DNA from: Janthinobacterium sp. Marseille
GTDB taxonomy: Bacteria; Pseudomonadota; Gammaproteobacteria; Burkholderiales; Burkholderiaceae_D
Assembly: GCF_000013625.1 (NCBI RefSeq)
Contig: NC_009659.1
Location: 2,604,001 to 2,668,000 of the forward strand
Length of the DNA: 64,000 bases
Direction: 5' to 3'
A model generated the notes under the pieces. The model was not told the DNA's origin and made no database searches. It was given only the letters and a program-made list of their open reading frames with translations. Of the stretch, positions 25,061 to 64,000 are shown piece after piece (position 1 is the stretch's first letter; every line of letters begins with the position of its first letter). Position numbers and translations under genes: made by a program.

Positions 25061-25441
25061 GGTGGCGGATAGGTAAATGGAGAGCGCGGCGGGCGCAGAG
25101 TTGCCATAGGTTAATGTTAGTGAGCAAACATTTCAACTTAATGACAAATGCCGGCAGTGCCGGAGCCGGCCGGGTCGGATGCAGCTTCCCCGCCACACTT
25201 GCGTCGACGCGTCAGTGCTCACCTTGCATAAAAAATAATTTGGCTTGGTAAACGCATGTCATCGTCATGTCATTTACGCCCGTTACAGTACGCCTTGTTT
25301 GCCACACTCCACTATAGGTTTGGGTGAACAAACCCAAGCCTGCCTCCTCACCGAAGCGGGCTTTTTTATTGTCTTCCATGCAGGCAAACAAAAGGCCTCT
25401 GCAACGAGAGGCCTTTTGGTCATACCCGGGCTGCTATCAGG
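25061..25441. other. Intergenic region, possible small RNA near its right end
   Basis: This 381-bp stretch has no supportable protein gene. Around 25313-25372 on the plus strand two hairpins follow one another: GGTTTG-GGTGAA-CAAACC, then AGCCTGC-N12-GCGGGCT followed by six T residues. The second hairpin has the form of a terminator yet no plus-strand gene precedes it, so a short RNA could end here. The downstream hairpin at 25390-25417 is the frc-side terminator. No tRNA was found. Confidence 0.35.
25390..25417. terminator. Bidirectional terminator after the CoA-transferase gene at 25442
   Basis: AAAAGGCCTCT (25390-25400), loop GCAACG and AGAGGCCTTTT (25407-25417) form a perfect 11-bp stem with A and T tracts, 24 bp beyond the stop of the minus-strand CoA-transferase gene. 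Confidence 0.85.
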
Positions 25442-31173: not shown

Positions 31174-31274
31174 TGCGCTAAAACTTTCAGTCCAAAGTTG
31201 GCCCCTTTTTTCATCCTGTTCGGCAAGTCAGATAGGAGCAGTCAATCCACTGATTTGTCGAAAAGGAATTTCCC

Positions 31275-43147: not shown

Positions 43148-46100
43148 TCAGCGTCGCAGGTTACGCCGCTCCGTATCTGTGAGTTGACGCAATTGCTTTT
43201 CGCTTAAATCCATCTGGCCCAGTACTTCTACCGCACCATTCGGATCATAAGCGGATGGACTCCGGTTGCCGCCATCGTTACGGCGCGGCGCTTCCTCACC
43301 TTCATTACCGAAACCAAGCACCCTTACCGTAAAGATCGAAGGCAGGTTCTTGCGCGCTTCGCTGCGATCACGTTGCACCACATCCTGCGCCGCCATTGCC
43401 GCTTGCGATGCTGCCGCGCTGGCATTGGTCAAGGCACCGATATTGGTCGCTGCGATCACCGGCAAGCCTTTCGCTTCACCCTTGACCTTGATATTGTCGG
43501 CGTTCAGTATCTGCAAGGCGATGATGTTCAGATTGCCTGCAACGCGGATACCGGCGTCACCCGCATTGATGACACCTTCCGGTGCCGCCAGGTCGACGTC
43601 ACCATCACCGACGGTACCGATGCCGCTACCGCTCATGTCGGACTTCTCACGTATGCTCGTGTTGCCGTCCAGGTCGGTGATGACTTCCGGTGCCGTAGGA
43701 ACGCGTACCGTTTTAGCACCACGACCGGCATCGATACCACCACGGCTCGACCAGATTATCTGGTCACTGCCGCGCAGGCTGGCTTCCGGCACAAAGGACA
43801 GGATGCGTGACTGGTTCACCACGACATCTTCCTTCGCGAAGACATTAATATGGCCGGAACCCAAAGTCACCAGGCCATAACCGGGAGGAACACTGGCCCC
43901 CAAAGCGGCAACCTGCAAACCGCCACCAGGTGTCAACACATTGATGTCGCCACCACTCATGGTACGCACCATCATATTATTGGCCGCGACATTCCCCTTC
44001 CATGCATCACCGGGAAACAGGGTGGCGATGGCGGCGTAACCACGGTTATAACCACCGTTGAGCGGCAAATCATTGACGCCCGGTTCATTTTGATTGCGCC
44101 CTGCTTCGCGCAACTCCAGCATGTAAACCTGGCGGATGAATTGCTGTTGCGCCAGTTGCGGCAAGGCCTGGAAGCGGGCCCATGCGGCCAATGGCGTCAG
44201 GTCTTCCCCTGTCATGTCCTTCATATAAGAAACCAGGCCGCGGCGTGTTACCTTTTGCTGCCCACCTGCCCGCGTTTCGACTTTATCCGTCAGGTAAATA
44301 GGCAATACGCTACCGTCGGCGGCTTGCGCTTTCAGGTAATCCGGCATCGCAGCCACCCTGGATGGATCAAGGTAAGCAGCGGCAAATGCGTCATACCCTG
44401 TTGCGCTATTCATGCCACCCATGATGGTGACGGAAGCACCCTGCGACGGCAAACCTTTGATCTGCGTATCGGGCATAGGACGGTTATCAGCAGAGTTGTA
44501 CTGCTGGTTGCCCAGGGTCTGTATCTTCAGGTGATCCGCATAGACATCACGTCCGGCGGACAAGACCAAGGTACCAGGCCCCTCGATATTGATGCTACCG
44601 GTATCAAGGGTACGCGACGGTGCCAGTGCGCGGACATTCGCCATCGCCAGGATATCGTTACCGGCTTCCAGCAAGGTCACATCGCTGGCCCGCACATTCC
44701 GTGCATTAACCCGCATGCCACGAATATCGGTACCGGCGCGCACCCAGGTCTGTTCGTTGGCAGTCAAATCCAGTCCGACGATGGAGCCGCGACCTGCATA
44801 CAAGCGGCTAGGTTCAAAATCACCGGCCAATGGCAATACGTCCGGATTACTCAAGGCACGCATATATGGATCACCGAAATGCGATGCACCGAGCGGTGCG
44901 ATCACGTTCGCCAACACCGCTTCCATAATGGTCTGACCCTGGCCGCCCGGCATGAATGGCGAGGGCATCATCCCGGGTGTGGCATACGGCATCACCAGTT
45001 GTGCTTCATTATCGCCATTAAAATTGAGGCTGCGCAGTTCATCACGGTTTTGCGTTGCAAAGCGGATGTCGCCCTGTGCAATCAATTGCACATCATTGGT
45101 ATTGCCGGCCATGATACGCAACGGCCCCTGTATTTCCAGGTTGCCGTTCAGCGCCACCGCCGACAGCTGGGCCGGGAAGCGGTTGCGGGCCTGACCAATG
45201 AGATTGTCCTGCGCGGTCGTATTCATGCGCAGTGACACATCACGGAATATAAAATCACCCTGGTTCACAAAAGTGATATTGCCGCCGGTAGACACCAGCT
45301 TCAGGGCGGTGCGCTCGGTATAACCGCTCATATAAGCGCCGTAATCCAGGCCGGTCACCACGCCGTTACCGTCATTACCCTTACGTATCAGCAGCGGATC
45401 TATCACTGTTTGCAAGCGCAAATCACCAGCCGTACGCAAGCTGAGCGTAGCGTCACCCAATGCCAGTATCGGTGCCACCGAGAAGGTAAAGACATTGCTA
45501 TCAAGATCACCTTCATTCCATTGCACGGTGACGGTATTGCCAATTGCCGTGTCACCTGCCTTGATGTCACCGCTACCGCGTGCCACGTAATACTGCCCGC
45601 CGCGTATGCTGCCACCGGCCTCCACCGTCATCGCGCCGCCGTTGCGCATTTCCATCAGCATCGCTTCGCTGGCCGAGCGACCGCCACGCATGCGCATGGT
45701 GGTCGGTAAAACTACGACCAGGTTGCCCAGGTCACCACCGGCACTGACACTGACATTACCGCCGCCGAGCGCACCTACACCCTGCTGGAACTGGCCGTAA
45801 TTGATCCACCAGCTCGACTGCTCAGGCGGCAATATCAACTTGCCATAGCTGCCATCAGGCCGGATACCGTACTCATTGCTTTCATACTCGCCGAAGTAAC
45901 GCTGCTCATTCACTGCACCCTGGCGATTCAACCATTCAACAAAACGCTGGCCGGCCGGCTGCGCCTCGATATTTCCTTGCGCACTGATATCCAGGTTACC
46001 GCCCTCGGTACCGTAGCTCGCATTCGGATTCCCGGTCGTGAAATCGCTCCACGTCGTCATATCCTTGCGACCGGCGGTATAGATCACCGACTCCTTGTGC

Positions 46101-49100
46101 GCCAGTGTCAGGTCGCGACCGGCACGCACTTCCAGGTCACCGGTGCCGGTGCGCACCAGCTTGCCCGCCCCGTTGTCTACCGCCTTGTCCGGATCTGTAT
46201 CAGCTGTGCCGATGACGATATTGCCGCTGCCGGCAACTTGTGCGGCCAGCGGTTTCAGCGCCAGCGTATTGGCCGAACCAAGATCGGCACCTGCCACCAG
46301 GCGCAGGTTCCACGACGCGCCTTCCTGCAGGCTGCCGCTGCGATCCGCATTGTCAAAGCCATCGCTCAAATGTCCTTTGATGATCAGGTTGCCGCCTGCC
46401 CTCAGGGTCAGCGAGCCTTCCCGTGCACCGGCAAAATCGCTATGCAAATTCCAGTCGCTATTCATGGTCAGGTCGCCGGCACTTTCAATTGCAATGCCGG
46501 ACATGACTGCGAGACTGGTGCCGAGGCGATTCGCAATCGCAGTGGAAGCGGCATTGAACTGGTTAGCATCACTGATCGCGGTAGCCTTGACCGAATCAAC
46601 GGTGCTGCCATCGAAGTCGGCGACGTTATATGTAGCTACACCTTCCAGTACCGCCGAGCGTGCGCCGATGACATTGACGTTCAGTGCCGTGACATTGATT
46701 TCATTGTGTGCGGCATTTTGTTCTGCCCGTAACCTGAGCTTGCCGCCTTCATTGCCAGCCACATCTATGCTGCCACCTTGCAGGTTCAGCTGTCCGCCTG
46801 CCGCTTCCAGCGTCACGCGGCCGCTACCCAGCTCACCGGTGGCACCGGCCAGCAGTTGTGCACCTGTGTTCATGGTCACGCCATCGCCACCGGTAATGCG
46901 GATCGCGCCACCATATGCAGCACGTGCATCGATCGTGCCGGTAATCGTGATGCTGCCCTGGTCGGCGGTGAGGCCGAAGTCTTCCACCTTGGTCAAACCA
47001 TCGAGCGTGATATCACCCTGGCGTATGCGGAACTGACGCGAACGATTGAAGCCTGCGTTATTCAGTACCTGGCTGAAACCGGCGAAGTCATTCAGTTCGG
47101 CAATGTCCAGCGAGAACGAACCCGCTTTCGCATTCGCCGCGGCTTGGGCATTGATGCTGCCGCCGAGGATGACGGTACCGCCATTCGCCGCCGCTATCGA
47201 CAGGCTGCCGGCATTGCCGCCATCCTTGTGGGCGGCAAGATTGAGCGTGCTACCGGTATTGAGGCGCACATCGCCACCTACTGCGGACAGTTTGATATTG
47301 CCGGCATCGGCGTATTCGGCGACATCGAAGAATTGTTTGCCAAAGCCGCTGACATCGATCTGCGCGCCATCCACCAGCACCAGGTTACCGGCGGTAGCGG
47401 TCATGTCGACACTACCACCGTAGGCGACGATACGACCACCCAATAACACACTCGCACCGGAAAAATTCAAGCGCGAACCGAGGCTGTCCTGCAAATTATG
47501 CTGGCCGGCATCACCACCTGCCGTCGCCAGGATTTGCAAGGCACCGGCGGTCGTGATGTTTTGCACTGCACCGCCACGGCCCGTGAGCAATGGCGTATTC
47601 AGGCTCAGGTCTATCGCACCGGTATCAACACCACCTTTACCGGCCCCGATGATTTGGTCGCGACCATTCAATGCAATGTGATTGAAGCCGGCGAAGTTCT
47701 TTTGCCCTGCGCCGAGGATCAGGGTTCCCGCATCCATGGTGAAATTACCCGTACCCGAACCGCTGGCAGCAAGCTTGGCTCCGCTGTTCTCCAGGGTGAT
47801 GGTGTCGCCTTTGATCACAACGTCACCCGTATGTCCGACGAAGGCCGCGCCATCCAGGCTAACCGAACGTAAGGAGGATGCACCCAGGTCCACCGATTGA
47901 TAAAAATCGAAGCTGGAGTAACTGCGCAAAGTGAGGTTTTTCGAGTTCGCCAACTGTGCCAGCGCTGCACTATCCAGCACCAGGCCGCTGCCGCCACCGA
48001 AACTGATACGCCCTGCAGCCACTGACAGGTTGGTACCTGATACTTGCGCAGAAGCCGCCAACTCCGTGGTGCGGGTCGCATCAATCAACAGTGCACCACC
48101 ACCGTTCAGTACGGCACCGGCACCGACCGTGACGAGGCCACCGCGACTGGTATCAACACCGTCACGTATCACTTTGATTGCATCACCGTTGGCCACACGA
48201 ATCAGCGCGCCCCAGTCTTTGGCGGGGGTGGTCAATACATCGTCGCGTGCGTCTTTGGCGTCGATCACACCATCGAAGTTGTCATCCAGGTTGCCATCCG
48301 GATCGGTATACACCGCCGCTTGCTGTGGCTTCACGATCAGGTTGCCGGTGCTGCTGGAACCACTGCCTTTTGCACTGACGACACTGCCCGCATCAATCGC
48401 GACTTGCTCGGTAGCTGCAAGGATAATTTCCGGACCCGACAATTCCGAACCGGCACCATTCCGAACCACGATATCGGTCGCCGTTACACTCAGTTGTGTA
48501 CCGAGCAGATCTCCTTTACGCGTGCCGCCGATCAGCAAGCTGCCGGCACCGAAGTTGGACAGACCCGCGGCATCAATGATCAGGTAACCGTCCGCCTGCA
48601 ATGTACCCGCGTCCTGGCCTGCACCAACAATGGCGATTTTCTTGCCGGCGATATCCACCAAACCGCCACGACCGTCTTTATCCGCCTGCGACAACAAGGT
48701 GCCATCCAGCGTCAGGTGTGTGGTCGCATCAAACACCACTGCACCACCATCGCGCGCCAGGCGTGGCGTCACCACGTCCTGCCCGGTCAGGCGATACTGC
48801 GTCAGCTTGAAGGCATCCGACGCAAAGAAATTATTCGAAAAAGCTTCGTTGTATTCGGTATATTTGCGTAGTGTCGTACCCGACATCACACGCCAGGCCG
48901 AAGCCTGTGCATCTTCGGTATTGCCATAGGCGCTACCGGCCTTGCCTTGCATAATGATGCTGCCGTCGCGCATGACGATACCGGCACTCACCGGCCCACC
49001 CCACGCATTACCTGTGGCTTGCACTGCAAAGGCTCCCGGCAACAAGGCGTAACGTGCAGGCAGCAAGGTGTACCAGCCTGCAGCCAGGCCGGCACCGCCG

Positions 49101-52100
49101 GCCAGCCAGATGCGATTACCTGATTCCGCTCCGCTGATTGGCGCCGTGGCCTGCTGTCCCGGCATCACTGCATACATACCCGGCAGATTCAACACATCAT
49201 GCGAACCACCCGGTCCCGGCACAAATTCCCATGCATATAAATCACCACCACCACGAATGTCGACGATTGCACCTTGCGCCAGGTCTACTGTCGGCGCTTT
49301 CATCGTGATGCGTTTTTCCGGCGGTGAAGTCAGCGAACCGGCGGCCGGATTGCTGCCATCGCTTGCTTTGGTCGGATCTTTCCAGTGTTCATTATTTGAT
49401 AGCGTGCCATACGGTACGATCAGGCCTGCACCGGAAACAGAAGTGATACTGCCCGCACCCAGCGTCAGGCGATCGGCGGCAACCAGTTCGATTTGCCCGA
49501 ACGGTGCGCGCAACACGCCATTCTGTTCTATCACCGGCGCTTCCAGGCGCAAGGTACCGCCTGCCGATAAAGGCACGTAGGCATCATGGCCCGAACGTTC
49601 CACCGTGATCGATTCAGCGGAAACAATTTTTGCATTGACAGCTGTAGACGGATAAACCTGGCCCACCGTGATGATCAACTTGCCATCCACATCCAGCGTG
49701 CTATTCGCCGCCGCAGGATTCGTCGATGTATCTATCGGATAATTACCGACGCTGAAACGCAATTCCGCCGCATTCAATGCGGTCTCTGCAAAACTACGGA
49801 TGCTCACCGGTCCGGATAACGTGCCGGGACCGCTGGCGCCACCCACTACGTCGATCACATCCGCGTTCAGGCTCAGGCTGCCGGTACGATTGGCGACGAT
49901 TGGTGCCGCATTCGCCGAACTGGTTTGCTTGAGCCCGATGTAGGCCGCGCTCAGGCTGGCATGTCCGGTTTCGCCGGCGGCATGGCGCAGCGCACCGTCC
50001 ACGGTAATGCTTTTGCTCGCAGACAATTGCACATCGCCCAACTCTACCGCCCCGGTCGACGCCAACTCCAGATTGGCGAAACCGCCATTGGCAAACGATG
50101 CCGGACGCACGGTCAGCACGGAATTCACCGGTGTCAGGTTGCGGAAATCGACGCCGATGATATCGCGGAAGGCATCCAGTGCATCGTTGCTCAAACCAAA
50201 TGCCGTATAGTCGGTTGCGCCGCCACCCTGGCCGCCGCCGACCGGTGCAGTCGCGGAAACAGTCAAGGCAACGGTGGAAGCCGAAGCGAGATGGTCAAAT
50301 AACTGCTGCGTGATCACCATCGGCGGCATGCCGGGGAAACCGTACTGTTCCAATACCGCCGCAAAGTCCACGCCTATGATGCTGGCCGGGGTACAGAAAC
50401 CCGCCGTCTGGCACAGGACCTGCACAACCTGGTCTGCCAGGTTGCCACCGACACCTGCAGGTTTATGTTGCAATGACAGCTTGCCACCTTCCGCACCTGC
50501 GCCACCAGCGTTTGCCAACAAATCACCGGCTACCAAGCCTTCGCCACGTATGGTGATGGTGCCACCGTTACTCGCCAGGGATTGGGTGCCGGCACCACGC
50601 ACATCCACTACGCCATTCGCACCTGATACATCGATCAGGGAACCTGCTTCCAGCGTGACTTTTGCGCCGAGAATATCCACCGTACCACCGGCCAGCACTT
50701 CGCCCTGCCATAAACCGGAAGCATCCTGATAAATCGCCGGCACGCCACGCGCCAGCAATTGCGCAGCGGCACCGATCTGTATTTCCTTGCCCGTCAACTC
50801 GATACGGCCTGCCGGCGCTTCCAGGTGACCCAGCATCGTCAATACACCGTTTTCTCCACCGGCAGCCAGCCGGATCTGGCCCCGCGTATCGGTGATGATG
50901 CTGGCACCGCTACCCACATGGATCGCACCATCAGCCGTACCCAGGCTGATGCCACCGGCTTGCTGTTTGAGGCGTTGCTCCGGTCGCAATACGGCATGTG
51001 GTGCCAAGTCCGCCAGGCGTTCACCACTATGCACATCACGATATGCAAAGGAATTCAAATCAATGCCGACCGCTTCCTGCCTGACCGTCACACCATCCGC
51101 CACCACGATACCGCCATTGCCACGCACACTGACCGCAACCGTACCAAAGCCACGCTCACCAAACATGGTCGCAGGCAACAAGACGACGGCCGGGTCATTA
51201 CGAACGCCACCGATTTGTACCGAGGAACTGGTGTCAAGGAACAGGCTGCCCGCAGAGCCGGCGGCATAGGCACGCAGATTGAGTGCGCCCAGGTCCAGGT
51301 CGGGCGAGATACCGGACAGCGTGATAGAGCCTGCATTACCGACCCGCAAGGAAGGCAAGCCTTTGCTGCCGATATCGACACGGCCACCACCGGAAACATC
51401 AATTACCGCATTCGGATCGGCAACGATCTTGCCGACATACAGTTTGATTGATCCACCGTCCATCGCCCACGCACCGGACGACATGCCGTCGCGCCAGGCA
51501 TTGATCCATTGGCCGGAGACATCGAGGCCGCCGTGTTCACCTATCGTCAACTGACCGTTAGCCGAATCCAGTCCGATCGAGCCGCCTGCCGCGCGTATCA
51601 TGCCGTTGATGCGGATACTGCCGGTCGCGCCCTCGGCACCCGATACATTCAGCGAGGCACCCGGCGAGAGTTCCAGATTGGCGCCCGTCGACAATTCAAA
51701 ATCGCCACGGATGGTATTGAAAATGGTCCTGCCCATGCCGGAACTGTTCAGCATGTCATCCGACAGGAAAGTCAGTTTCTTTGATTGCGGATTGGCCGGA
51801 TCATTCGGCACATAGAAATCCGCGCCCAATGCAGTCGCAGAATTGAATGCATCATCCAAACGTTTCGGATCATGGCTAACGATAATCGTGCCAGGCGACC
51901 ATGGACGGTCTTCGACAGTGCCGCCGCCCAGTTCCACTTTGCCACCGATATTCGCATTCGGCTTTTGTTGCTGGCGATCACCAATGATCACGCCGCCCCA
52001 CAAGCCACCTTCGAGCACCATCGCATCACCGGCAAACACCTGCAGTGAACCGGCCTTGCGCCCTTCGACGTAACCGTTCTCCATCGCATCGCCGCCGAAC

Positions 52101-54439: not shown

Positions 54440-54515
54440 ATCGCCCCAACTCCCATCTAGCAGATTCAGTCAGCCGGCTCCCAGGGTGTAGGGAACCGGA
54501 CATGTAACCATATGC

Positions 54516-54570
54516 ACCGATGACATTCATCATCGGTACTCCTGCGATCTAGACAGTTAAGCGCGCTTAA
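54516..54570. promoter_or_regulatory. Two perfect inverted repeats upstream of the giant haemagglutinin gene
   Basis: In the 198-bp gap before the gene, ACCGATGA-CATTCA-TCATCGGT (54516-54537) is a perfect 8-bp stem, and TTAAGCGCGCTTAA (54557-54570) is a perfect 14-base palindrome. Neither has a trailing T tract in the reading direction, so operator or mRNA-leader roles are more likely than termination. Confidence 0.5.
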
Positions 54571-54637
54571 ATCGGCAAATATTTTTATGTCGTTTTGATG
54601 ACATCAGAAACTGGCAGCGGCAGAGCGCCAGCCGGCT

Positions 54638-55645
54638 TCAGCTGAGCAAGACCACGCCGCCAGGAAGATTACTGATTTGCAAGCCGAGCGAACGCTGGAT
54701 TTGCGCCAGCGCTTTATCCAGTGCATCGAGACGGAAGCGACCGGTGACTGCCTTGGCCGCCATTTTTTTGTCGAGCAGGACGACGCGCCCGGGGCGATAA
54801 CGATTGATTTCTTCCACCACTTCAGCCAGCGGCGTTTCACTAAACCGCAATGAGCCTTCGCGCCATGCGGATACTGCTGCGGGATCAATGCTGGCGATAT
54901 TGCCCAAGGTCTTGTCGTCGTACATCAATTGTTCGCGCGCTGCCAGGATGACGCGACCTGCCGTGTGTGACACATGTACCCGTCCCTGCAGGCAAGTCAC
55001 ACAAACACCGTTCGCGGCAGACTTGACTTCAAAGCGGGCATTTTGCGCAGAGCTGCGACCTGCACCTGCGGCAACGACAAATATTTCATTGGTATTGACG
55101 ATATCGACCGCGGCTTCGCCAGCAATCAGGTCGATTCCGGCGACACCTGCACGGCTGTTCTTTACGGCGATGCTGGTGCGGGTATTGAGTTCCACGTTAA
55201 CATTTTCCGTCAGCGCCAGCTTGCGTTGTTCGCCGACAGCGGTACGGTAATCGGCGTTCAATTCTGCATACGAAGGCCAGAGGTTGAGTGGTGGACGGAA
55301 TACGACCACGGCGGCAGTGGCTGCGCTTGCGCACACGGCACCACCGAGGAAGGCACGACGTGCCGGACTGCTGACGCGGGAACGCGATGCCGGCTCGGCC
55401 TGCATCGCACCCGGATTGCGTGCCACTACCAATTCACTGGCCTGTCCCAGTTGCTGCCAGCGCCGACGTGCTGCAGAGAACGCTGCCGCGTGTGCCTGGT
55501 TTTCCGCACACCAGCGTTTCAGTGCGGCACCGTCGGCAGGCGTCATCTTGCCCGTCGCGACCTGACGCACCCAGGCGTAGGCTTGCTGTTCCAGCGCGCC
55601 CAGCGTTCTTTCATCATGGTATGAATGATTCATCATTTTCGTCAT
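54638..55645 (-). CDS. FecR-type anti-sigma/sigma regulator, Tat-like membrane signal
   Basis: 335 residues. N-terminal DUF4880-type anti-sigma segment (LEQQAYAWVRQVATGKMTPADGAALKRWCAENQ), a twin-arginine-like motif RRAFLGG (96-102) directly before the membrane segment (99-115), the FecR periplasmic domain (YRTAVGEQRKLALTENVNVELNTRT, AQNARFEVKS) and a C-terminal STN-like domain (LRFSETPLAEVVEEINRYRPGRVVLLDKKM). Tat-dependent insertion is known for some FecR-type proteins. It follows the sigma gene by 69 bp. No TonB-dependent receptor is encoded nearby, so its signal must come from another partner. Confidence 0.9.
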   Translation of the reverse strand: MTKMMNHSYHDERTLGALEQQAYAWVRQVATGKMTPADGAALKRWCAENQAHAAAFSAARRRWQQLGQASELVVARNPGAMQAEPASRSRVSSPARRAFLGGAVCASAATAAVVVFRPPLNLWPSYAELNADYRTAVGEQRKLALTENVNVELNTRTSIAVKNSRAGVAGIDLIAGEAAVDIVNTNEIFVVAAGAGRSSAQNARFEVKSAANGVCVTCLQGRVHVSHTAGRVILAAREQLMYDDKTLGNIASIDPAAVSAWREGSLRFSETPLAEVVEEINRYRPGRVVLLDKKMAAKAVTGRFRLDALDKALAQIQRSLGLQISNLPGGVVLLS

Positions 55646-55714
55646 GGCGTCACAGACAAGATCTTTGCAGCCTTGAAGACAAGACGGTTGGCAAACATAA
55701 AATCGGCAACATTT

Positions 55715-56230
55715 TTATTCATCCTTGGGCATATGCGCCATGCAGTACTCATGCGCACGCTTCAATTCGAGGCCGACCAGCCGGGGCGAGACACCAAAGC
55801 GTAACGCTGCATCCTGGTTCGACAAACCATCCACCCGTATCGCGAGGAAAATCGCACGGCGGCGGCGCGGCATGCTTTCGATGATATTCGCCAGCATTTC
55901 AATCTCATCACGGGCAGCGGCCACTTGTGCCGGACCCGGGGCCGGATCGGCGATTTCCACCATCAGGTTTTCCAGTTCGTCCGCATTCATATAGCGGCGA
56001 TCACGTTGCAGGCGGTCCAATGCAAGATTGGTCGCCACGCGCATCAGGTAGGCGGCCGGATTCTTGACCGGTCCATTGTCTTCATTGCGGTTTTCCAGGT
56101 GCAGCCAGGTGTCATGCAAGGCATCGCTGGCAACCTCGACCGAACCCAGGCGCCACGCAAGGCGGCGCTTCAGTTCGTCATAGCGCTGCGTCAGAAGCTC
56201 GCGCAGGGCCGACAGGCTGGAGTCACTCAT
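55715..56230 (-). CDS. ECF sigma factor (FecI-like)
   Basis: 171 residues from the ATG at 56230 (a GTG two codons upstream is also open). Region 2 is seen in LTQRYDELKRRLAWRLGSVEVASDALHDTWLHLE and NPAAYLMRVATNLALDRLQRDRR; region 4 in IESMPRRRRAIFLAIRVDGLSNQDAALRFGVSPRLVGLELKRA. It is less canonical in region 4 than the fecI-type gene at 29702 but clearly an ECF factor. It is paired with the FecR gene downstream and the STN-TonB_C gene 42 bp upstream. Promoter targets were not identified. Confidence 0.9.
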   Translation of the reverse strand: MSDSSLSALRELLTQRYDELKRRLAWRLGSVEVASDALHDTWLHLENRNEDNGPVKNPAAYLMRVATNLALDRLQRDRRYMNADELENLMVEIADPAPGPAQVAAARDEIEMLANIIESMPRRRRAIFLAIRVDGLSNQDAALRFGVSPRLVGLELKRAHEYCMAHMPKDE

Positions 56231-56272
56231 GGCCACTCAAAAAATGGATGGGATGGAGGCGCATGGCCAGTC

Positions 56273-56935
56273 CTATTGAAGGGAGCTGCATACAGGCTTT
56301 TCTTTCTTCGCACGCGGCTTGATAAGGATGACGAAGGGTTTTTCCGGCGCAGATGGTGCCTGGCTGACCTGGACCTTTTGCACTTCGCTGACAATCGCAG
56401 CATCACGCTGGCGATTGCCGGTGGTATCCAGCAAACGCGCTTCCTGTACCTGGCCGTCCTGTCCCATCTTCACCAGCATGGCCAGGCGATACGTGCCCAG
56501 CGCCAGGTCTTCGCGCGCACACAAGGCCCTGCGGATTCCCTCTTGCACCAGGCCGTCAAAATAGCGCGACGCGGACGTGGCCACAGGATGCGAAAGGGAT
56601 GCTTTGCCCACCACAGGAATAAGTACGAAGGCATCATCGGCGACCGACTGTATCGTCAGCCCGGTTCCTTCCAGCAGCATTTGCAAGGCTTGCTGCGGCA
56701 GGAAGAAACCTTGCACGGCGCTTGATATCTTGCCCGCCGCCAGTTCGGAAGAAAAGAACACCGACAGATTGGTGCTGGCATCAAATTTCTCCAGCGCGAC
56801 CTTCAGCGATTGCGCCGGCAGGTCAAACAGTATTTCGGTGCCGGCACGAACCTGGTGGCATACGAGGCTCAAGGCCAGCGCAGCCATACATCCCATCAAT
56901 GGGCGCACACCGGTATATGCGACTATGTTTGCCAT
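56273..56935 (-). CDS. Exported STN-domain protein with C-terminal TonB-like domain
   Basis: 220 residues: signal peptide (cut near residue 31), an STN domain (34-108: LPAQSLKVALEKFDASTNLSVFF, GKISSAVQGFFLPQQALQMLLEG, GLTIQSVADDAFVLIPV), then a TonB/TolA C-terminal-like domain (123-208: QEGIRRALCAREDL, YRLAMLVKMGQDGQVQEARLLDTTGN, AIVSEV) and a basic tail. STN domains normally sit on TonB receptors and touch FecR; here one is on a small soluble periplasmic protein next to a sigma/FecR pair. It probably replaces the receptor as FecR's partner (inference). Confidence 0.8.
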   Translation of the reverse strand: MANIVAYTGVRPLMGCMAALALSLVCHQVRAGTEILFDLPAQSLKVALEKFDASTNLSVFFSSELAAGKISSAVQGFFLPQQALQMLLEGTGLTIQSVADDAFVLIPVVGKASLSHPVATSASRYFDGLVQEGIRRALCAREDLALGTYRLAMLVKMGQDGQVQEARLLDTTGNRQRDAAIVSEVQKVQVSQAPSAPEKPFVILIKPRAKKEKPVCSSLQ

Positions 56936-57044
56936 ATGAGATTGGATGCCTGTTCATGCAGGGTGTTGGAGGAAATCAGGAAGGCAGGCATTCTTGGCGG
57001 CCTTTGCGCCTTTGCTTACGGCAGCCATTCTATGAAGAAAATAT

Positions 57045-57069
57045 GACCGCTCCATGACGGTCTTTTTTT
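57045..57069 (+). terminator. Terminator-like hairpin between the STN and HtrA genes
   Basis: GACCG-N8-CGGTC (57045-57062) followed on the plus strand by seven T residues. No plus-strand gene precedes it. On the minus strand it lies 50 bp past the HtrA stop and has a weaker T run (ATTTTC), so it may partly terminate the upstream genes. Confidence 0.6.
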
Positions 57070-57118
57070 GCAACACGGAAGTAATACACACACCATTCCT
57101 GTCGCTCTTCGCGGCTGT

Positions 57119-58480
57119 TTATTCAGGCTCACGGGTCGCCTGCTTTTGCGTTTCAATCGGAATAAACAAACGTGCCGCACCGCGCTGTATCAGCAATGCC
57201 GCTGCACCATCAGCCACCCCGACTTCGTCGGCCAGGCCCTGGATCGTACTAACCGTGCGGCCATTGACCGCCATGATCACATCACCGACTTTCACACCGG
57301 CACGCGCGGCTGCGGCATTGATACGCTGCACCAGCAAACCGCCATCTATCCGTAACACCAATTGTTCTTGCGGAAACAAAGGACGCACCACCAATCCCAG
57401 CGGCGTCGCCAGTTCCGGCTCTATCTTCGGTGCCGGGAGTGCATCGAAGCGATCCGGTACAACTGTCAACAAGAGTGCTTTTTTCTCGCGCCATACTTTT
57501 AAAACGGTTTCTTCACCCGGCGCCGAATCGGCGATAAAGATCAGGGCATCGGCAGATTGCAGTACTTCATTGCCCTTGACCTGCAAGATCACATCGCCGG
57601 ATTTCAAGCCGGCGCGATCCGCCGCCGCTCCCCGCTCAACGTAGCTGACGAGGGCACCGGCAGGTCGCGGCAAATGGAAGGATTCCGCCAGCGGCTGGCT
57701 GACTTCCTGCACGCTGACGCCGATGCGGCCGCGCGTGACCGCTCCCTTGTCCTGCAACTGTTCCTTGATACGCATCGCGGCATCAATCGGTATCGCAAAA
57801 GACAAGCCCTGGTAACCACCGCTATTGCTATAGATGCGTGAATTAATGCCGATGACTTCACCATACTGATTGAACAACGGACCGCCGGAATTACCCGGAT
57901 TGACCGGCACATCGGTTTGCAGGAAGGGAATGTAATCAGCACCGGGCAGGATGCGGCGTGTGGCGCTGATGATGCCGGCGGTAGCCGAGTTACTGAAACC
58001 AAAAGGTGAGCCTATCGCCAGCGCCCAGTCACCGACTTCCACTTTATTCGGATTGCCTATACGCACCGTGGGCAAGCCTTGCGCATCTATTTTCAGCAAG
58101 GCGACGTCGGCCACCGCATCGCTACCGATCAGGCGCGCCTTGAATTCCCGGCGATCCGGCAGCTTGACGCTGATTTGCGTACCGCGTGCCACCACATGTG
58201 CATTCGTCAGGATGTAGCCATCCGTGCTGACGATAAAGCCCGAACCCAGGCTCGCTTCTTCATTTGCATTTTGCGGTGAACGCAGTCGTTGCGCCTGGTC
58301 CCGTGCCACACCGATATTCACCACGGCCGGACCATAGGTCCTGGCCAGCGCGGAAAAATCCGGCGCACTCCACAAGGCGCCGTTCTGCATCCCGCCACAA
58401 GCACCGAGCAAGGAAGCCGATAGCAGGACGAGTACGAAGCCGGCCTTGCGCAGGGCAATCATCAAACGGTCACCAGACAT
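57119..58480 (-). CDS. HtrA/Deg-type serine protease lipoprotein with two PDZ domains
   Basis: 453 residues. Lipobox SLLGAC with the acylated Cys at 28. Trypsin-like domain with complete triad: His95 (LTNAHVV), Asp125 (ADVALLKID), Ser198 (NPGNSGGPLF). Two PDZ domains follow (about 250-340, DRAGLKSGDVILQVKG; and 370-450, ARAGVKVGDVIMAVNGR). It should act in the periplasm attached to a membrane, degrading or trimming exported proteins. Its start is 3 bp after the TonB-like gene stop, so it is in one transcript with it. In this cluster its substrate could be the giant haemagglutinins. Confidence 0.92.
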   Translation of the reverse strand: MSGDRLMIALRKAGFVLVLLSASLLGACGGMQNGALWSAPDFSALARTYGPAVVNIGVARDQAQRLRSPQNANEEASLGSGFIVSTDGYILTNAHVVARGTQISVKLPDRREFKARLIGSDAVADVALLKIDAQGLPTVRIGNPNKVEVGDWALAIGSPFGFSNSATAGIISATRRILPGADYIPFLQTDVPVNPGNSGGPLFNQYGEVIGINSRIYSNSGGYQGLSFAIPIDAAMRIKEQLQDKGAVTRGRIGVSVQEVSQPLAESFHLPRPAGALVSYVERGAAADRAGLKSGDVILQVKGNEVLQSADALIFIADSAPGEETVLKVWREKKALLLTVVPDRFDALPAPKIEPELATPLGLVVRPLFPQEQLVLRIDGGLLVQRINAAAARAGVKVGDVIMAVNGRTVSTIQGLADEVGVADGAAALLIQRGAARLFIPIETQKQATREPE

Positions 58481-58483
58481 GCA

Positions 58484-58987
58484 TCAGGTTTTTGCCGCGA
58501 AACTCAGGCTCAGCTGCAATACCATCGGCTGGCGCATATCCCGTGGTGGCGGTTCGGACAGCGATTGCGTCATCATCAAGGAACGCAAATCCGCATCTGC
58601 CTGGGCCTGTCCCAGGGAAGCGAATTCAGTACGCGAAATCTTGCCATCCGGTGCCACCCATACCTTTACCACCAATGGTGGCGGCAAAGGCTGGCCTTCT
58701 TTCAGCAAACGTTCCTGCATCCAGCCATGCAGGCGCACCACGGTATCGTTGGCCGGATCACTAAGCCATGCTTCCAGTTGGTTGCCTGCCATCTGCGCGT
58801 AACTGATCCAGTGCTGCGGTACGCTTTGCGCCATCGCGGTTTGCACCATCACCGGTGCCGACGAAACCGTCAAACCCACACCCAGCACACCCATCATTTT
58901 CAGGGCACGATTCCATGTGCGCTTGATGACACCCTGTGTTGCCTGCTCTTGCATGTTCTTCCCATTCATATCAATTCCCGTTTCCAT
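58484..58987 (-). CDS. Exported TonB C-terminal-like protein
   Basis: 167 residues from the ATG at 58987; an ATG at residue 7 is also possible. A hydrophobic segment (30-50) ends in APVMVQTAMA, giving a likely cleavage at residue 53. The rest (80-163) resembles the TonB/TolA C-terminal domain: RLHGWMQERLLKEGQPLPPPL, VVKVWVAPDGKISRTEF, DLRSLMMTQSL. There is no proline-rich spanner, so it is not a classical TonB. It is a relative of the second domain of the STN protein in the same cluster. Confidence 0.7.
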   Translation of the reverse strand: METGIDMNGKNMQEQATQGVIKRTWNRALKMMGVLGVGLTVSSAPVMVQTAMAQSVPQHWISYAQMAGNQLEAWLSDPANDTVVRLHGWMQERLLKEGQPLPPPLVVKVWVAPDGKISRTEFASLGQAQADADLRSLMMTQSLSEPPPRDMRQPMVLQLSLSFAAKT

Positions 58988-59015
58988 GGCTACCCTGCTT
59001 ATTTAATTTCGATAT

Positions 59016-59747
59016 TCAGCCGCAAATGATCCCGACCGATAGCGTCGCCGCGCGCGCTGCCGGTGATTGCGTTGCCCCCAGTTGTGCGGCATCGCTTTCC
59101 GCAAAAGGAATCCCGCCATCACGCAGGAATTGCTTGATCTGCGTCACACCAACCGCGCGTACCACGCTGGCACCGGTAGGCACACCCGCTGCCGCGGCCC
59201 GGCTCAACATGGTGCTGGCCACCGCGCCATGACTGGCCGAACCGGAAGCCACGCGTGCCACCACCACGCCCAGCACCAGGCCGGCGCCGCCAATCACCGC
59301 ACTGCCGCTGGCTCCCGGCTTCACACCTGATAACAACTGCATGCCGTCTTCACCCGGCACCGTGATCGCATTGCTGACCAGGGTGGCGCGTCCGGGCAAA
59401 CGCTGCAGCACGCTGTATGCTTCGGAAAACACGCCGACACTGCTGCCGCTGCGTGCTTCGGTCTGCGCCAGCGTGGCAGTCAAATAAGGTTTAAGCGAAG
59501 TGCGCAAGACCGCCAGGTCCAGCCCGGCATTCGCCAGGACCAGCTTTACTTCGACCACGCGACCATCCTTGACCGCATAAATCGTGCTGCAGCTCCCGAC
59601 CGCATGATGCGCAGTCAATACATCGCCGGCCGCATTCAGGAATACGCCGCTGGCATGGGTATCCAGCCCCGTGCGGGGCGGCAAGTCCGGCGCGGCCTGC
59701 ACTACCAGCGGCAGGCATGCCAACGCCAAAAAGAGCCGATGCATCAT
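59016..59747 (-). CDS. Exported trypsin-like serine protease
   Basis: 243 residues with signal peptide (cut near residue 19). Trypsin-fold motifs: TAHHAV with His48, LDLAVLRT with Asp78, and GASGSAV with Ser147, so the catalytic triad looks intact. There is no PDZ domain. GGGAG precedes the ATG by seven bases. It lies between the giant haemagglutinin (161 bp upstream) and the TonB-like gene, and probably works on the exported protein. Confidence 0.8.
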   Translation of the reverse strand: MMHRLFLALACLPLVVQAAPDLPPRTGLDTHASGVFLNAAGDVLTAHHAVGSCSTIYAVKDGRVVEVKLVLANAGLDLAVLRTSLKPYLTATLAQTEARSGSSVGVFSEAYSVLQRLPGRATLVSNAITVPGEDGMQLLSGVKPGASGSAVIGGAGLVLGVVVARVASGSASHGAVASTMLSRAAAAGVPTGASVVRAVGVTQIKQFLRDGGIPFAESDAAQLGATQSPAARAATLSVGIICG

Positions 59748-59908
59748 GCACGGCTCCCGCTGGCGACCATCTTTCGCATTAACTTCTTCATATCCTTCTT
59801 TCCCCGGTCATCCCCACCCTTGCGCATAAGGCAGGGCTGACCATAAGCAAGACGGAAATCGCGCGCTTCAAGTGACGTTTGTCACGAAAATGTCATAAAT
59901 CTATTGCC

Positions 59909-62900
59909 TTATTTTTTCAAACGACGCTGCTCCACCTCCGTCAGGCGTGCCATTTGGGCCGGGTCCAGATTGCCCTGGCCCAATACCTGGAAGGCACTAC
60001 CCTTGTCGTAAGCGGCACCACGTTGCGCGCCGCCGGCCGGAGCCGATGACGGCTGATCCGCGGCACCACCCTCAGGTACATCATTGCCAAAGCCGAGCAC
60101 CCGCACCGTAAAGACCGACGGCAGGTTCTTGCGTGCTTCGCTGCGGTCACGTGCCATCACATCCTGTGCCGCCGCTGCCGCCGAGCTGGCCGCCGCACTG
60201 GCATTGGTCAAGGCACCAACGTTGACGGATGCAATCATCGGGATACCGGTCGCCTCACCCGCCACCTTGATGTTGGCGGCATTCACCACTTGCAGCGCGA
60301 AGATGTTGACGTTGCCCGAAACCCGGATACCCGCTTCGCCGGCATCGATGGTGCCCAGCGGTGCGATCAGGTCGACGTTACCGGCTGCCGCTTCCGGTAC
60401 CGGGCTCAGGGTGGCAATACCGGCACCAGAGCTCGGCACTTGCGGCGACAGGGTCACATTGCCCCACTGGTCGTAGACGCGTTTAGGCGGCGTGTACAGG
60501 ACAGTCGTTTTGGAACCGCGGCCGGCATTGATGTCACCCTGTTCCGACCAGGCAAAGATATCGCCACCAAAGGTGGTCATCACGCGCGACAGGCCAAGCA
60601 ACAGGCTCTGTTCACTGAAGATCTGGATATCGCCCCTGCCTTGTGTGACGACACCCGCAGTTGCAGCAGGTACTTCACCCTGCACGCCGACCACGATCTG
60701 GCCGCCCGGCGCCATCAACTGGATATTGCCGCCGAAGTTGGTGTGTACACCGGCATTACCGAACATCGTGATGTCACCGCTGCGTACTATCGTGTCACCG
60801 TTGGTATCGCGATCAGGGAACAGCGTCGCGATCATGTCGCGGCTGCGCAAGAAGGAGTTATAGCGACGGCTGTCCGGATTGTTGTACTCACGACCGCCTT
60901 CACGCAGTTCAGCGTAATACACATTACGCAGGAAGATGCGTTGCTGTTCCGGTGCCAGAGCATTGAAATAAGCCAGTGCATCTGCCGTCGTACCGCTAAA
61001 GCCGTAACGCTCTTTCAACCATGTCGCCAGCTCGGACTCATAAGTCTTCGCCACTTTCCCCGCTTGTCCGGCCAAAGCTGAATTCGGATCTGCCAGGTTG
61101 GCCGGATCAAGATAAAGTTTGGTAATCGCGCTGAAGTCCGGCCCATTGATACCACCACCGGCCATCATCGCAATATCGGCACCCGGACGGTTATCACCTT
61201 GCACCAAACCACCGAGGCTGACGACACTGGCTTTGGCGTCTTGTGTCAGGTTGCGTCCGGCGCTCAGTTCCAGTGTGCCGGGACCGGCCACCTGGATGTT
61301 CGCGTAGAGGATGTCGCGTCCGGCGTGTACCAGCGAGATATCGTTGTCGTTGTTGTGCACGAACAGGCTGTTGGTGTTAACCACATCGCGTCCGGCCTGG
61401 ATGCGGGCAGCAGTCGCGCCGCGATACCAGGTCCGGATAGTGCGACCTATACCCGTCATGTCTTGCCTTACACCGCTATTCACGCCGATCACGTCACCGT
61501 TGACGGCATAGAACAATGCGGCGGAACTATCACCGGCATGCAAGGCGCTTGCGCCCAGCGTATCCGGACCGAAAGCGAATAAGGGGAAGTAATGCTGTTT
61601 GCCCAGAATAGCGTCACCGCTAAACTGATCATTACTCGTCATTCCACCATCCATGCTCAGGTTGGAAACCGCGATGCGTCCCTGTGCATTGAAACCGACA
61701 AATGCCGGATTGAACGGGGTCGGCAAAGGTGTATCGGAGCCCGACATGGCGATCGGATAGCCACCGCCATAGATGGAATTACCGGCGAGGAATTCGAGCG
61801 CACCGCTGGCCGAAGGAGCAAGCACCAGATACTTATTGGTATCGGTACCCGAAGAGCCTGGTGCCGCAGAGAAACCGTAATACAGGTTGCCGTTGGCCGC
61901 AGTCGCACGCAGGATGGACGGATACGTAATCACCATATCGCCGACATTGGCATTACCCGTGCTGGAGCCGCGATTCACAATGTCGGTACCCGGCGTCAGG
62001 TTGCCACCGGCAGCAAACAGATTGATCGCCGTATGCTTGTCCCATAGCGAGAACCAGCTTTGGCCACCACCCAGGTAGTTCGTACCATTCGCTGTATAAG
62101 GTGAGCTATTCACCGTAAATGTACGGCCCGGATCAGCGACCGTTGCCAGTACCAGATCACCCAGCGTATCCAGATAAATCGCTGTGTCACCCGGCACCAG
62201 TGTGATACCGCCGCTGCCGCTGGCAACCGTAGCTGTGAACGGATCTATGGTGCGGACGTCAGCTGCGTCACCATCGAAACCACGGAACTGCGCCAGCAAT
62301 TGACGGTAGCGTGGCTTGATGTCACCGATTGCAGTCGCTGCTACCGAAGTCGTGCCACGCAAGTTGATCAGGGCGCCGTTCAGGTCATGGTTCTGCACAT
62401 TGGCACCACCACTGCCAAATTGCGTTGCATCAAAATCCGGATTGAGTACACCACCCAAGCGTATGTGCAAGTCACCGCCACCGGTCAGTACCAGCTTACC
62501 GTCAGCATCGACGCGACCAGTGCTGCCTACCGCCGCGACCAGGGCCTGGCTGCGCGGGTAATTCTGCAGGGTATTGCCGGCGCCGCGGCGCGCCGTTACA
62601 CCTGCATCGCCACCTGCTTCAATATTCAGGTTACCGCCACCCAGGGTACCCAGTCCGGTGAAGCCAACCAGGTAAGGTTCCTGATACTCGGTTGCCCACA
62701 CAGTCGCCAGTGGCACTGCATAAGCACCGAAATTGATCCACCATGCAGTCGGTACGGCCTCACCTGCAGCGGAAGTACTGCCAGTACCCTGCCGCCACAA
62801 CCAGTTGCCGACGCTGGCACTTGGGACATTCGGCCGTTCCGGCCACGTGAAGGTACCCCATACATCGCCGGTGATGTCCTTGCCGACAGAAATGCTCAGG

Positions 62901-64000
62901 TTGCCGCCCTGCTCCGGATACCACGCCTGGTAAGCCGCCAGTGCTGCGCTGTAATCATTGCTTTGCGCACCGAGCAGGGTATTGTTGGTATGCAGGCCGC
63001 GCGGCTGATTGAACAGATCGACACCATTGCTGTCGAGTATGGTCGCCGAAGGTGTACCAGCGGTGTAGACGCCGTACGCCGATTGCATGCGGAAATCACC
63101 GGCTGCCGTCATGCCGATGTCACCGGTACCGGTACGCAGCACGCTGAACATAGGCGAGAGCAATGTATGCAGCGTGACGTCCCGCACCGGATTAATGGTC
63201 AATACGCACATGCCCGGGCTATCACAGATACCCAGTTCAACATATAAAGGATCTACTGGTGTGCCTTCTTCAAAGCCGGACGGAACAGCGTCAGGCCCCC
63301 AGGTGTATGACTTGCGCGCCGGATCGATGCCACACATCTCCGGTAAAACATCACAGAGCCACGTATCATCAACGCCGACAGGAGTACCAGGCACATAGCC
63401 CATACCCCATGGATCCTGATCCGTCCAGACAAAACCAGTACCGCCCGGCTTCACCTCTACGCGCGTCATCGCATGGGTATCAGCCAAAATAATGGAGCCT
63501 TTGGCAGCCGAATCAACTGCACGCCGGTCGGCTGACGCCATATCCGCGCCTGCCGTCAGCTGCAAACTCCAGCTGCTTGCACCCTTACCCAACATAGGTG
63601 CCAGCGCCCAGTTGGCGCCTTGTACGCCATTCACTTCGGGACGCAGGTTAATCGCTTTGTCATCGAGCAGCTCAACCCTGGTCATCGCCGGGATCAAGGC
63701 ACCACGCGCCAGCGTGATGGCGCTGCTGGCCGCCATCGCGACCGGCAACTTGTAGCCTTTCGGCCATACCAGGGCAGCCACGTCTGCGCTGCTGCGCAAG
63801 GCTGTACCAGCCCCCAGCTTCATACCGCTGCTCAGCGTGACGTCGCTCGCCATCACAGTACCAGCCGCCCAGGCTATGCTGCCATTGGCGTTGTATACAT
63901 TTGCCGCCAGCACGGTACCTGCACGCAGCGTGTGGTCAGCAGTCAACGTTACATCGACCGGCAAGACAGTGCCGCCAGGCAAACTCAAACCTGCTGCGTG
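59909..64000 (-). CDS. Second giant filamentous-haemagglutinin-family protein, C-terminal part (cut by right edge)
   Basis: The frame is open to the right edge, giving at least 1363 residues of C-terminal sequence. It is beta-helical and repetitive and includes two Cys pairs (near 63205-63225 and 63335-63360, CX5C and CX6C). The DUF3739 region is present (QRIFLRNVYYAELREGGREYNNP), and the last 100 residues (GALTNASAAASS, RDRSEARKNLPSVFTVRVLGFGN, LGQGNLDPAQM) match those of the giant protein at 43148. The signal peptide and TPS domain must lie beyond the window. It is upstream of, and in the same direction as, the proteases and the sigma/FecR genes. Confidence 0.9.
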   Translation of the reverse strand, partial: HAAGLSLPGGTVLPVDVTLTADHTLRAGTVLAANVYNANGSIAWAAGTVMASDVTLSSGMKLGAGTALRSSADVAALVWPKGYKLPVAMAASSAITLARGALIPAMTRVELLDDKAINLRPEVNGVQGANWALAPMLGKGASSWSLQLTAGADMASADRRAVDSAAKGSIILADTHAMTRVEVKPGGTGFVWTDQDPWGMGYVPGTPVGVDDTWLCDVLPEMCGIDPARKSYTWGPDAVPSGFEEGTPVDPLYVELGICDSPGMCVLTINPVRDVTLHTLLSPMFSVLRTGTGDIGMTAAGDFRMQSAYGVYTAGTPSATILDSNGVDLFNQPRGLHTNNTLLGAQSNDYSAALAAYQAWYPEQGGNLSISVGKDITGDVWGTFTWPERPNVPSASVGNWLWRQGTGSTSAAGEAVPTAWWINFGAYAVPLATVWATEYQEPYLVGFTGLGTLGGGNLNIEAGGDAGVTARRGAGNTLQNYPRSQALVAAVGSTGRVDADGKLVLTGGGDLHIRLGGVLNPDFDATQFGSGGANVQNHDLNGALINLRGTTSVAATAIGDIKPRYRQLLAQFRGFDGDAADVRTIDPFTATVASGSGGITLVPGDTAIYLDTLGDLVLATVADPGRTFTVNSSPYTANGTNYLGGGQSWFSLWDKHTAINLFAAGGNLTPGTDIVNRGSSTGNANVGDMVITYPSILRATAANGNLYYGFSAAPGSSGTDTNKYLVLAPSASGALEFLAGNSIYGGGYPIAMSGSDTPLPTPFNPAFVGFNAQGRIAVSNLSMDGGMTSNDQFSGDAILGKQHYFPLFAFGPDTLGASALHAGDSSAALFYAVNGDVIGVNSGVRQDMTGIGRTIRTWYRGATAARIQAGRDVVNTNSLFVHNNDNDISLVHAGRDILYANIQVAGPGTLELSAGRNLTQDAKASVVSLGGLVQGDNRPGADIAMMAGGGINGPDFSAITKLYLDPANLADPNSALAGQAGKVAKTYESELATWLKERYGFSGTTADALAYFNALAPEQQRIFLRNVYYAELREGGREYNNPDSRRYNSFLRSRDMIATLFPDRDTNGDTIVRSGDITMFGNAGVHTNFGGNIQLMAPGGQIVVGVQGEVPAATAGVVTQGRGDIQIFSEQSLLLGLSRVMTTFGGDIFAWSEQGDINAGRGSKTTVLYTPPKRVYDQWGNVTLSPQVPSSGAGIATLSPVPEAAAGNVDLIAPLGTIDAGEAGIRVSGNVNIFALQVVNAANIKVAGEATGIPMIASVNVGALTNASAAASSAAAAAQDVMARDRSEARKNLPSVFTVRVLGFGNDVPEGGAADQPSSAPAGGAQRGAAYDKGSAFQVLGQGNLDPAQMARLTEVEQRRLKK

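What the first reader, a model, noticed from the sequence alone, without database searches (positions are those of the whole stretch)
43148..64000. Eight-gene minus-strand cluster linking a FecI/FecR-type signalling pair to two giant haemagglutinins and two proteases
Seen: genes for two giant FHA-like proteins, a trypsin-like protease, an HtrA lipoprotein protease, a TonB-C-like protein, an STN-TonB_C fusion, an ECF sigma factor and a FecR protein are adjacent and co-directional. Known: sigma/FecR pairs are normally run by a TonB-dependent receptor. No receptor is present here. Inferred: the fusion protein senses secretion or ligand state of the exoprotein and passes it to FecR, which frees sigma to express the adhesins and their processing proteases.
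Basis: partly seen in the sequence, partly recalled or inferred. Interest (0 to 1): 0.85.

Follow-up and report, generated by a model that had tools for sequence, protein, structure and literature searches.

The report
Fourfold PUMA3-type adhesin signalling cluster
The eight genes are real and belong to a signalling-plus-giant-adhesin system already described in Pseudomonas aeruginosa and already noted as repeated four times in a Janthinobacterium; what looks new is DNA evidence that phosphate starvation controls it here too, together with a small protease unit.

Summary
Observation confirmed: eight co-directional genes (two DUF3739 giants, trypsin-like protease, TonB_C-like protein, HtrA lipoprotein, STN-TonB_C fusion, ECF sigma, FecR). 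A sigma/FecR pair with an STN-TonB_C protein instead of a receptor is the PUMA3/Vre system of P. aeruginosa, which drives a two-partner exoprotein. The genome has exactly the length of Janthinobacterium sp. Marseille, and Llamas 2009 already reports PUMA3 "repeated four times" in Janthinobacterium sp. All four DUF3739 exoproteins here follow a VreA-sigma-FecR triplet; three modules form one array with one TpsB-ExbB-ExbD-TonB operon.

Added here: PhoB-box-like repeats (two mismatches or fewer) upstream of vreA in 16 of 17 modules from this and related genomes, and at the tpsA1-3, tpsB and trypsin promoters, so phosphate starvation should gate the system; a candidate sigma -10 word, GTCTAG, in 7 of 17 leaders; in a 200-genome order sample only 3 of 23 DUF3739 genomes carry the triplet, and 15 of 15 informative others have no sigma/FecR beside the exoprotein; VreA's C-terminal half is kin to the operon's TonB. 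That the fusion senses secretion state is untested; deleting vreA in PAO1 left target promoters at wild-type level.

The parts
43148..54439 (-). tpsA3: giant TPS exoprotein, 3763 aa, TPS domain and C-terminal DUF3739
   Evidence: 24-33% identity in pieces to the other paralogues
54549..54554 (-). candidate sigma -10 word GTCTAG in the tpsA3 leader
   Evidence: 7 of 17 leaders against 0.2 expected
54587..54604 (.). PhoB-box-like repeat before tpsA3 (2 mismatches on either strand)
54638..55645 (-). fecR3 (VreR-like anti-sigma), 335 aa
   Evidence: FecR, DUF4880 and sub-threshold FecR_C
55715..56236 (-). sigma3 (VreI-like ECF sigma), 173 aa
   Evidence: Sigma70_r2 and r4_2; 39-50% identity to the three paralogues
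56273..56935 (-). vreA3: STN - TolA/TonB_C fusion, 220 aa, no beta-barrel
   Evidence: AF2 model and fold match
57043..57059 (-). PhoB-box-like repeat before vreA3 (2 mismatches)
57119..58480 (-). HtrA/Do-family serine protease, 453 aa, two PDZ, lipobox-like N-terminus (read by eye)
   Evidence: TIGR02037 403.5 bits, just under its cut-off of 416.2
58484..58987 (-). TonB_C-like protein, 167 aa
   Evidence: TonB_2 E 0.013; fold match to TolA/TonB C-terminal domains
59016..59747 (-). trypsin-like serine protease, 243 aa; H-D-S triad read by eye
   Evidence: Trypsin_2 1e-11
59850..59854 (-). candidate -10 start (CGTCT) 25 nt after the PhoB box of the trypsin gene
59880..59896 (+). exact PhoB-box-like repeat before the trypsin - TonB_C - HtrA unit
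59909..64000 (-). tpsA2: giant TPS exoprotein (4196 aa, runs to window coordinate 72499), DUF3739; cut by the window end

Best explanation
The window shows one whole (third) and part of another (second) of four PUMA3/Vre-type modules of one genome. Each module is vreA - sigma - fecR followed by its own giant two-partner exoprotein; one operon (tpsB, exbB, exbD, tonB, porin and others) serves the array. Proposed working: (1) in low phosphate, PhoB binds the repeat upstream of each vreA and the housekeeping sigma transcribes vreA-sigma-fecR [boxes shown; activity inferred from PAO1]; (2) FecR holds the sigma factor at the membrane [family knowledge]; (3) freed sigma, recruited with PhoB, starts tpsA, tpsB and the trypsin-TonB_C-HtrA unit, whose leaders carry a PhoB box and, at tpsB and the trypsin gene, CGTCT 25 nt further on [sequence shown, activity inferred]; (4) VreA's STN half can dock on the FecR C-terminal domain, and its TonB_C half, kin to the operon's own TonB, on whatever that TonB touches at the outer membrane; this would trim rather than switch sigma activity [inferred]; (5) HtrA and the trypsin-like protease act on exoprotein in transit [inferred].
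Against: No expression data. L038 has no box (3 mismatches); own vreA3, tpsA3 and tpsB boxes have 2 mismatches, a level seen by chance throughout the 75 kb (26 hits against 21 expected); tpsA4 shows no box. Seven of the 11 exact boxes of the genome are neither in this system nor at ppk. GTCTAG is absent from 10 of 17 leaders, and other 6-mers also reach 7 of 17; box-25-CGTCT occurs at four other places in the genome. ppk, pst and phoB are known Pho genes from recall. VreA was dispensable in PAO1.
Confidence: 0.75

Rival explanations
1. One reading: the fusion protein senses whether exoprotein is being secreted or bound and actively triggers FecR to free sigma.
For: STN half matches domains that contact anti-sigma factors, C-terminal half matches TolA/TonB domains and is kin to the operon TonB: profile hits limited to the C-terminal half lie within 5.5 kb of DUF3739 in 14 of 23 DUF3739 genomes.
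Against: In PAO1 vreA deletion left PpdtA and PphdA at wild-type level and virulence unchanged. Those tests used low phosphate only, so a role under another signal is not excluded.
Confidence: 0.15
2. The four sigma factors form one shared regulon: any of them can start any tpsA, so the modules are redundant rather than private.
For: Sigma proteins are 39-50% identical to sigma3; tpsA2, tpsA3 and tpsB leaders share GTCTAG although they belong to different modules.
Against: Each exoprotein keeps its own sigma and FecR next to it; tpsA1 and tpsA4 leaders lack the word.
Confidence: 0.4
3. The trypsin - TonB_C - HtrA unit is a passenger with its own job, not part of exoprotein processing.
For: The trypsin and TonB_C families pair with each other widely (22 shared contig lengths among 91 and 120 listed; consecutive locus tags in Oxalicibacterium flavum), mostly without a VreA match; no unit in G158 or G138; in Variovorax sp. 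KBW07 the TonB_C gene is on another contig than the VreA module.
Against: Own exact PhoB box and -10-like word like tpsB; VreA3 relatives share contig lengths with TonB_C (3) and trypsin (2) relatives among 28 listed; TonB_C homologue just before vreA in Xanthomonas sp. AmX2.
Confidence: 0.4
4. Chance neighbourhood of unrelated genes.
For: None beyond the variable position of the protease unit.
Against: Triplet and exoprotein together in 4 of 4 own modules, 11 of 11 named loci and both further order genomes with a full-length VreA.
Confidence: 0.02

Closest known systems
PUMA3 / VreA-VreI-VreR cell-surface signalling system with the PdtA-PdtB two-partner system, Pseudomonas aeruginosa
   Same: Order vreA-sigma-fecR; VreA-type STN plus TolA/TonB_C protein without barrel; linked TpsA, TpsB, ExbB, ExbD, TonB, porin, PPIase; pho boxes before vreA and exoprotein genes (paper passages; own).
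   Different: Four modules, each directly followed by its own tpsA; no hxc type II secretion genes between them in the stretches read; a protease unit with a PhoB box between modules 2 and 3; no phdA seen.
Fourfold PUMA3 repeat of Janthinobacterium sp. and Rhodopseudomonas palustris (Llamas 2009, Discussion)
   Same: Four PUMA3 clusters with tpsA homologues and a tpsB-exbBD-PA0696 set; very probably this very genome (length 4,110,251).
   Different: The paper says three clusters are followed by tpsA and the fourth by tpsB; here all four are followed by tpsA, the one before tpsB being frame-broken. The part of the paper seen says nothing of the proteases or pho boxes in this organism.
Canonical FecI/FecR/FecA signalling
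   Same: ECF sigma and FecR-type anti-sigma.
   Different: No TonB-dependent receptor; VreA-like protein instead.
FHA-type two-partner secretion (type Vb) and DegP of Bordetella
   Same: TPS domain exoprotein, TpsB with POTRA; HtrA-family protease as a plausible helper.
   Different: A review states that maturation protease genes appear not to be part of TPS operons (PMC5422565, passage); here two protease genes sit inside the array.

Membership tests
PUMA3/Vre cell-surface signalling | VreA-type protein: signal peptide, STN domain, TolA/TonB_C domain, no beta-barrel | tested here: met
   Length 220 aa; STN; folds; TonB_2 in paralogues. Signal peptide read by eye only.
PUMA3/Vre cell-surface signalling | vreA-sigma-fecR in that order, linked to tpsA and to tpsB-exbBD-tonB-PA0696-type genes | tested here: met
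PUMA3/Vre cell-surface signalling | pho box before vreA and before the exoprotein genes | tested here: met
   tpsA4 lacks one, and vreA3, tpsA3 and tpsB have 2 mismatches
PUMA3/Vre cell-surface signalling | direct sequence homology to PA0674-PA0676 | not tested
   No P. aeruginosa sequence was fetched; likeness rests on architecture, fold and gene order.
PUMA3/Vre cell-surface signalling | sigma activates tpsA with PhoB; FecR restrains it | not testable with these tools
   needs transcript data
Canonical FecI/FecR/FecA system | TonB-dependent transducer with STN domain next to sigma/FecR | tested here: not met
   STN proteins of the array are 226-280 aa frames, not the 800-aa-class receptors found elsewhere in the genome; no receptor
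Two-partner secretion (type Vb) | TpsA with TPS domain plus TpsB with POTRA and ShlB barrel | tested here: met
   TPS 2e-18 in tpsA3; ShlB 9.2e-25 and POTRA_2 3.1e-14 in the array's TpsB. That this TpsB serves all four exoproteins is inferred: six ShlB-family genes exist.
Pho regulon | direct repeats with 11-bp period, as at known Pho genes of the same genome | tested here: met
Pho regulon | PhoB binding and low-phosphate induction | not testable with these tools
   needs bench work
HtrA/Do serine proteases (57119-58480) | trypsin-like domain with PDZ domains | tested here: met
   the Do-family model scores 403.5 bits against a cut-off of 416.2

The most novel reading that the evidence does not exclude
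A bacterium keeps four parallel receptor-less signalling modules, each with its own giant adhesin, all gated by phosphate starvation and probably sharing one secretion port. VreA is a free-standing TonB look-alike: its C-terminal half, kin to the operon's TonB, probes the same outer-membrane partner and reports through its STN half to FecR, so each exoprotein tunes its own sigma, while a Pho-controlled protease unit clears or trims stalled exoprotein.
Probability: 0.15. Interest if true: 0.7.

Novelty: already known. Interest (0 to 1): 0.35.

Why it matters
The finding as posed is answered by published work, which saves effort. The additions turn a one-species result (phosphate starvation plus VreI) into a testable rule for a wider group of proteobacteria, suggest which promoters the sigma factors use, show that most DUF3739 loci sampled in the order lack this control, and point to a shared partner of VreA and TonB, which bears on the open question of what VreA does.

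Tried and rejected
Canonical FecA-type signalling: rejected, no receptor in the array. Chance neighbourhood: rejected. Conserved DUF3739-sigma linkage as a general rule: rejected by the order sample. Redox signalling between VreA (Cys139 and Cys216 invariant in 21 and 29 rows) and FecR (CVTC in 14 of 15): kept only as a note; the comparison FecRs were two, one of them badly aligned, and TolA domain III has a disulfide of its own (recalled). Trypsin-like protease as a conserved part of the module: no close relative among 399 order genomes (290 have generic matches; best non-self 34% identity), though the sample has no other genome of its genus. PDB sequence search with the TonB_C family gave nothing up to E 1. 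DUF3739 is not named in any held paper. A -10/-35 consensus for VreI could not be taken from the paper because the table letters are not held. Searches for earlier reports of this arrangement or of its phosphate control outside Pseudomonas returned Llamas 2009 for the arrangement and none for phosphate control in this organism; the library holds open-access papers only and I judged mostly from listings.
Full report

Beyond the window. The window is G000:C1:2604001-2668000 of a 4,110,251-bp single-contig genome. It has four DUF3739 places. Each belongs to a giant exoprotein gene with an STN-TonB_C protein, an ECF sigma and a FecR directly upstream on the same strand: module 3 (this window), module 2 (exoprotein 2663909-2676499, FecR, sigma and fusion up to 2679157), module 1 (exoprotein 2689552-2701275 plus a second frame 2688507-2689634 carrying DUF3739; FecR, sigma and fusion up to 2703707) and a distant module 4 (2153341-2168243). 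The exoprotein of module 1 is thus broken in frame just before DUF3739. Downstream of it come TpsB (ShlB, POTRA_2), ExbB (with DUF2341 and laminin-G-like regions), an ExbD-like frame, TonB, a porin, a 227-aa protein, a PPIase and two small genes; ExbD and the small genes were named by eye. Exoproteins 1, 2 and 4 are 48-54% identical over nearly full length, exoprotein 3 is 24-33% identical to them in pieces. The genome has six ShlB-family genes, only one of them in the array, so a shared port is an inference.

Which organism, and what is in print. The length equals that printed for Janthinobacterium sp. Marseille in PMC2040194 (passage) and PMC5670224 (passage); identity rests on that length, not on a record name. 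Llamas 2009 (PMC2729926; passages, section 7, first part of the Discussion) describes PUMA3: VreA has an STN-like and a TolA/TonB-like domain and no barrel, and VreI raises expression of tpsA, tpsB, exbB2, exbD2, PA0696-PA0699 and others. It states that in R. palustris and Janthinobacterium sp. [quoted passage not shown] PMC3566124 (passage) says that only one complete Janthinobacterium genome, strain Marseille, existed by 2013. So the core of the finding is published, very probably from this genome. The one difference is that all four clusters here are followed by a tpsA; the frame-broken copy may explain the paper's count.

Phosphate control. In PAO1, PhoB and VreI are both needed at PpdtA and PphdA, which have pho boxes, and PhoB at PvreA (PMC4971064, passages, section 21). 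I scanned for TGTCAYN5TGTCAY. In the 75-kb array there are 7 sites with at most one mismatch against 1.6 expected from a first-order Markov model; 5 of the 7 lie before tpsA1, tpsA2, vreA1, vreA2 and the trypsin gene, one lies inside tpsA2 and one at 2711380. At two mismatches the array has 26 sites against 21 expected, so the vreA3, tpsA3 and tpsB sites rest on position, not on rarity. Genome-wide there are 11 exact sites and 0 for the reversed pattern: three in this system (vreA4, trypsin, tpsA2), one at ppk, seven elsewhere. Beside phoB, phoU and pstC the pattern marks ppk (exact) and the gene in the place of pstS (one mismatch; not family-tested), and three overlapping sites precede an OlsB-like gene. 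In the 11 named loci, about 222 kb, all 8 sites with at most one mismatch lie before vreA (6) or tpsA (2); two of the loci are near-identical. In 250 bp upstream of vreA, with start codons of some relatives set by me, 11 of 17 modules have a site with at most one mismatch and 16 of 17 at most two; the miss is L038. In 12 of the 17 the site lies 90-125 bp before the start. Fisher's p is 2e-13 on 15 non-redundant modules.

Candidate sigma promoter. GTCTAG occurs in 7 of 17 leaders (tpsA2, tpsA3, tpsB, L028, L031, L037, G158) against 0.2 expected, though other words also reach 7 of 17 and shuffled sets reach 6.4 on average for their best word. On the gene strand of the 75-kb array it occurs three times, and all three are in leaders; in the nine named loci used it occurs three times on the gene strand, again all in leaders. 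tpsA2, L031 and L028 are orthologous leaders, so the independent count is smaller. At tpsB and the trypsin gene the PhoB box is followed after exactly 25 nt by CGTCTAGG and CGTCTTGC, at tpsA1 by GGTCATAG; tpsA2 and tpsA3 do not show that spacing. The box-half-25-CGTCT pattern occurs six times in the genome, two of them here.

How general is the linkage? Searching named genomes with the exoprotein N-terminus gave 11 loci, and in all 11 fusion, sigma and FecR stand before the exoprotein: Janthinobacterium, Herminiimonas, an Alcaligenaceae bacterium, Pandoraea, Xanthomonas, Variovorax and Pseudothauera. That search reaches close relatives only. In a sample of 200 genomes of the order, 23 have DUF3739 and only 3 have a full-length fusion: this genome (4 copies), G158 and G138. 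All three have DUF3739 downstream of it. The first look scored at most 14 candidates per genome. Of the 20 others I fetched 18 (not G118, G173); 3 stretches lacked the exoprotein start. In the 15 informative ones tpsB stands directly before tpsA in 15, exbB follows in 14 (the last is cut), and no sigma, FecR or full-length fusion was found with profiles from this family. Three of the 15 carry a PhoB-like site (one mismatch) within 400 bp before tpsB, two of them from one genus. So the triplet is a regulatory add-on to a wider DUF3739 exoprotein operon.

VreA and TonB. The fusion profile hits, with its C-terminal half only, a TonB-like gene within 5.5 kb of DUF3739 in 14 of the 23 DUF3739 genomes, and on the same contig in G158. 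[quoted passage not shown] no contact is shown.

The protease unit. Trypsin, TonB_C and HtrA genes are packed with gaps of 28 and 3 bp behind an exact PhoB box. Two of the four Trypsin_2 proteins of the genome are here. Close relatives of the trypsin and TonB_C proteins pair with each other (22 shared contig lengths of 91 and 120 listed; a proxy, as contigs were not opened), and VreA relatives share a contig length with TonB_C relatives in 3 cases and with trypsin relatives in 2, of 28. The unit is absent from G158 and G138. A role in exoprotein processing is therefore plausible but open.

Verdict. A known system, probably in a genome where it was already counted. The additions worth keeping are the phosphate boxes, the promoter word, the split between DUF3739 loci with and without the triplet, the VreA-TonB kinship and the protease unit.

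Noticed in passing
G000:C1:2688507-2701275 (outside the window, coordinates 84507-97275): Exoprotein gene of module 1 is broken in frame just before its DUF3739 region: two overlapping frames of 3907 and 375 aa. Sequencing error or real is unknown.
   Followed up: partly
window 25257-25273: Exact PhoB-box-like repeat in a gap between two minus-strand ORFs, one starting like a CaiB-type CoA transferase (by eye).
   Followed up: no
window 39443-41866 and 42051-43067: Plus-strand autotransporter with autochaperone domain, and an AraC-type regulator convergent with tpsA3.
   Followed up: no
window about 30526-31673: FecR and an STN protein in an 839-aa frame: looks like an ordinary receptor-type signalling pair, separate from this cluster.
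   Followed up: no
G000:C1:2152549-2153172: Extra ECF-type sigma gene right after the exoprotein of module 4, no anti-sigma gene seen beside it.
   Followed up: no
G000:C1:2684751-2686526: ExbB-type protein with DUF2341 and laminin-G-like regions at its N-terminus.
   Followed up: no
FecR and fusion proteins of the modules: CVTC motif in 14 of 15 TPS-linked FecRs (thin control) and two cysteines invariant in the fusions.
   Followed up: partly
relatives of window 58484-58987: Many relatives are named YbaB/EbfC DNA-binding protein in a source, others TonB C-terminal domain-containing; the fold favours the latter.
   Followed up: partly
G000:C1:2572844-2572887: Overlapping PhoB-like sites before an OlsB-like, a phosphodiesterase-like and a glycosyltransferase-like gene, resembling a lipid-remodelling operon (recalled) (OlsB-like scores below the family cut-off).
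   Followed up: no
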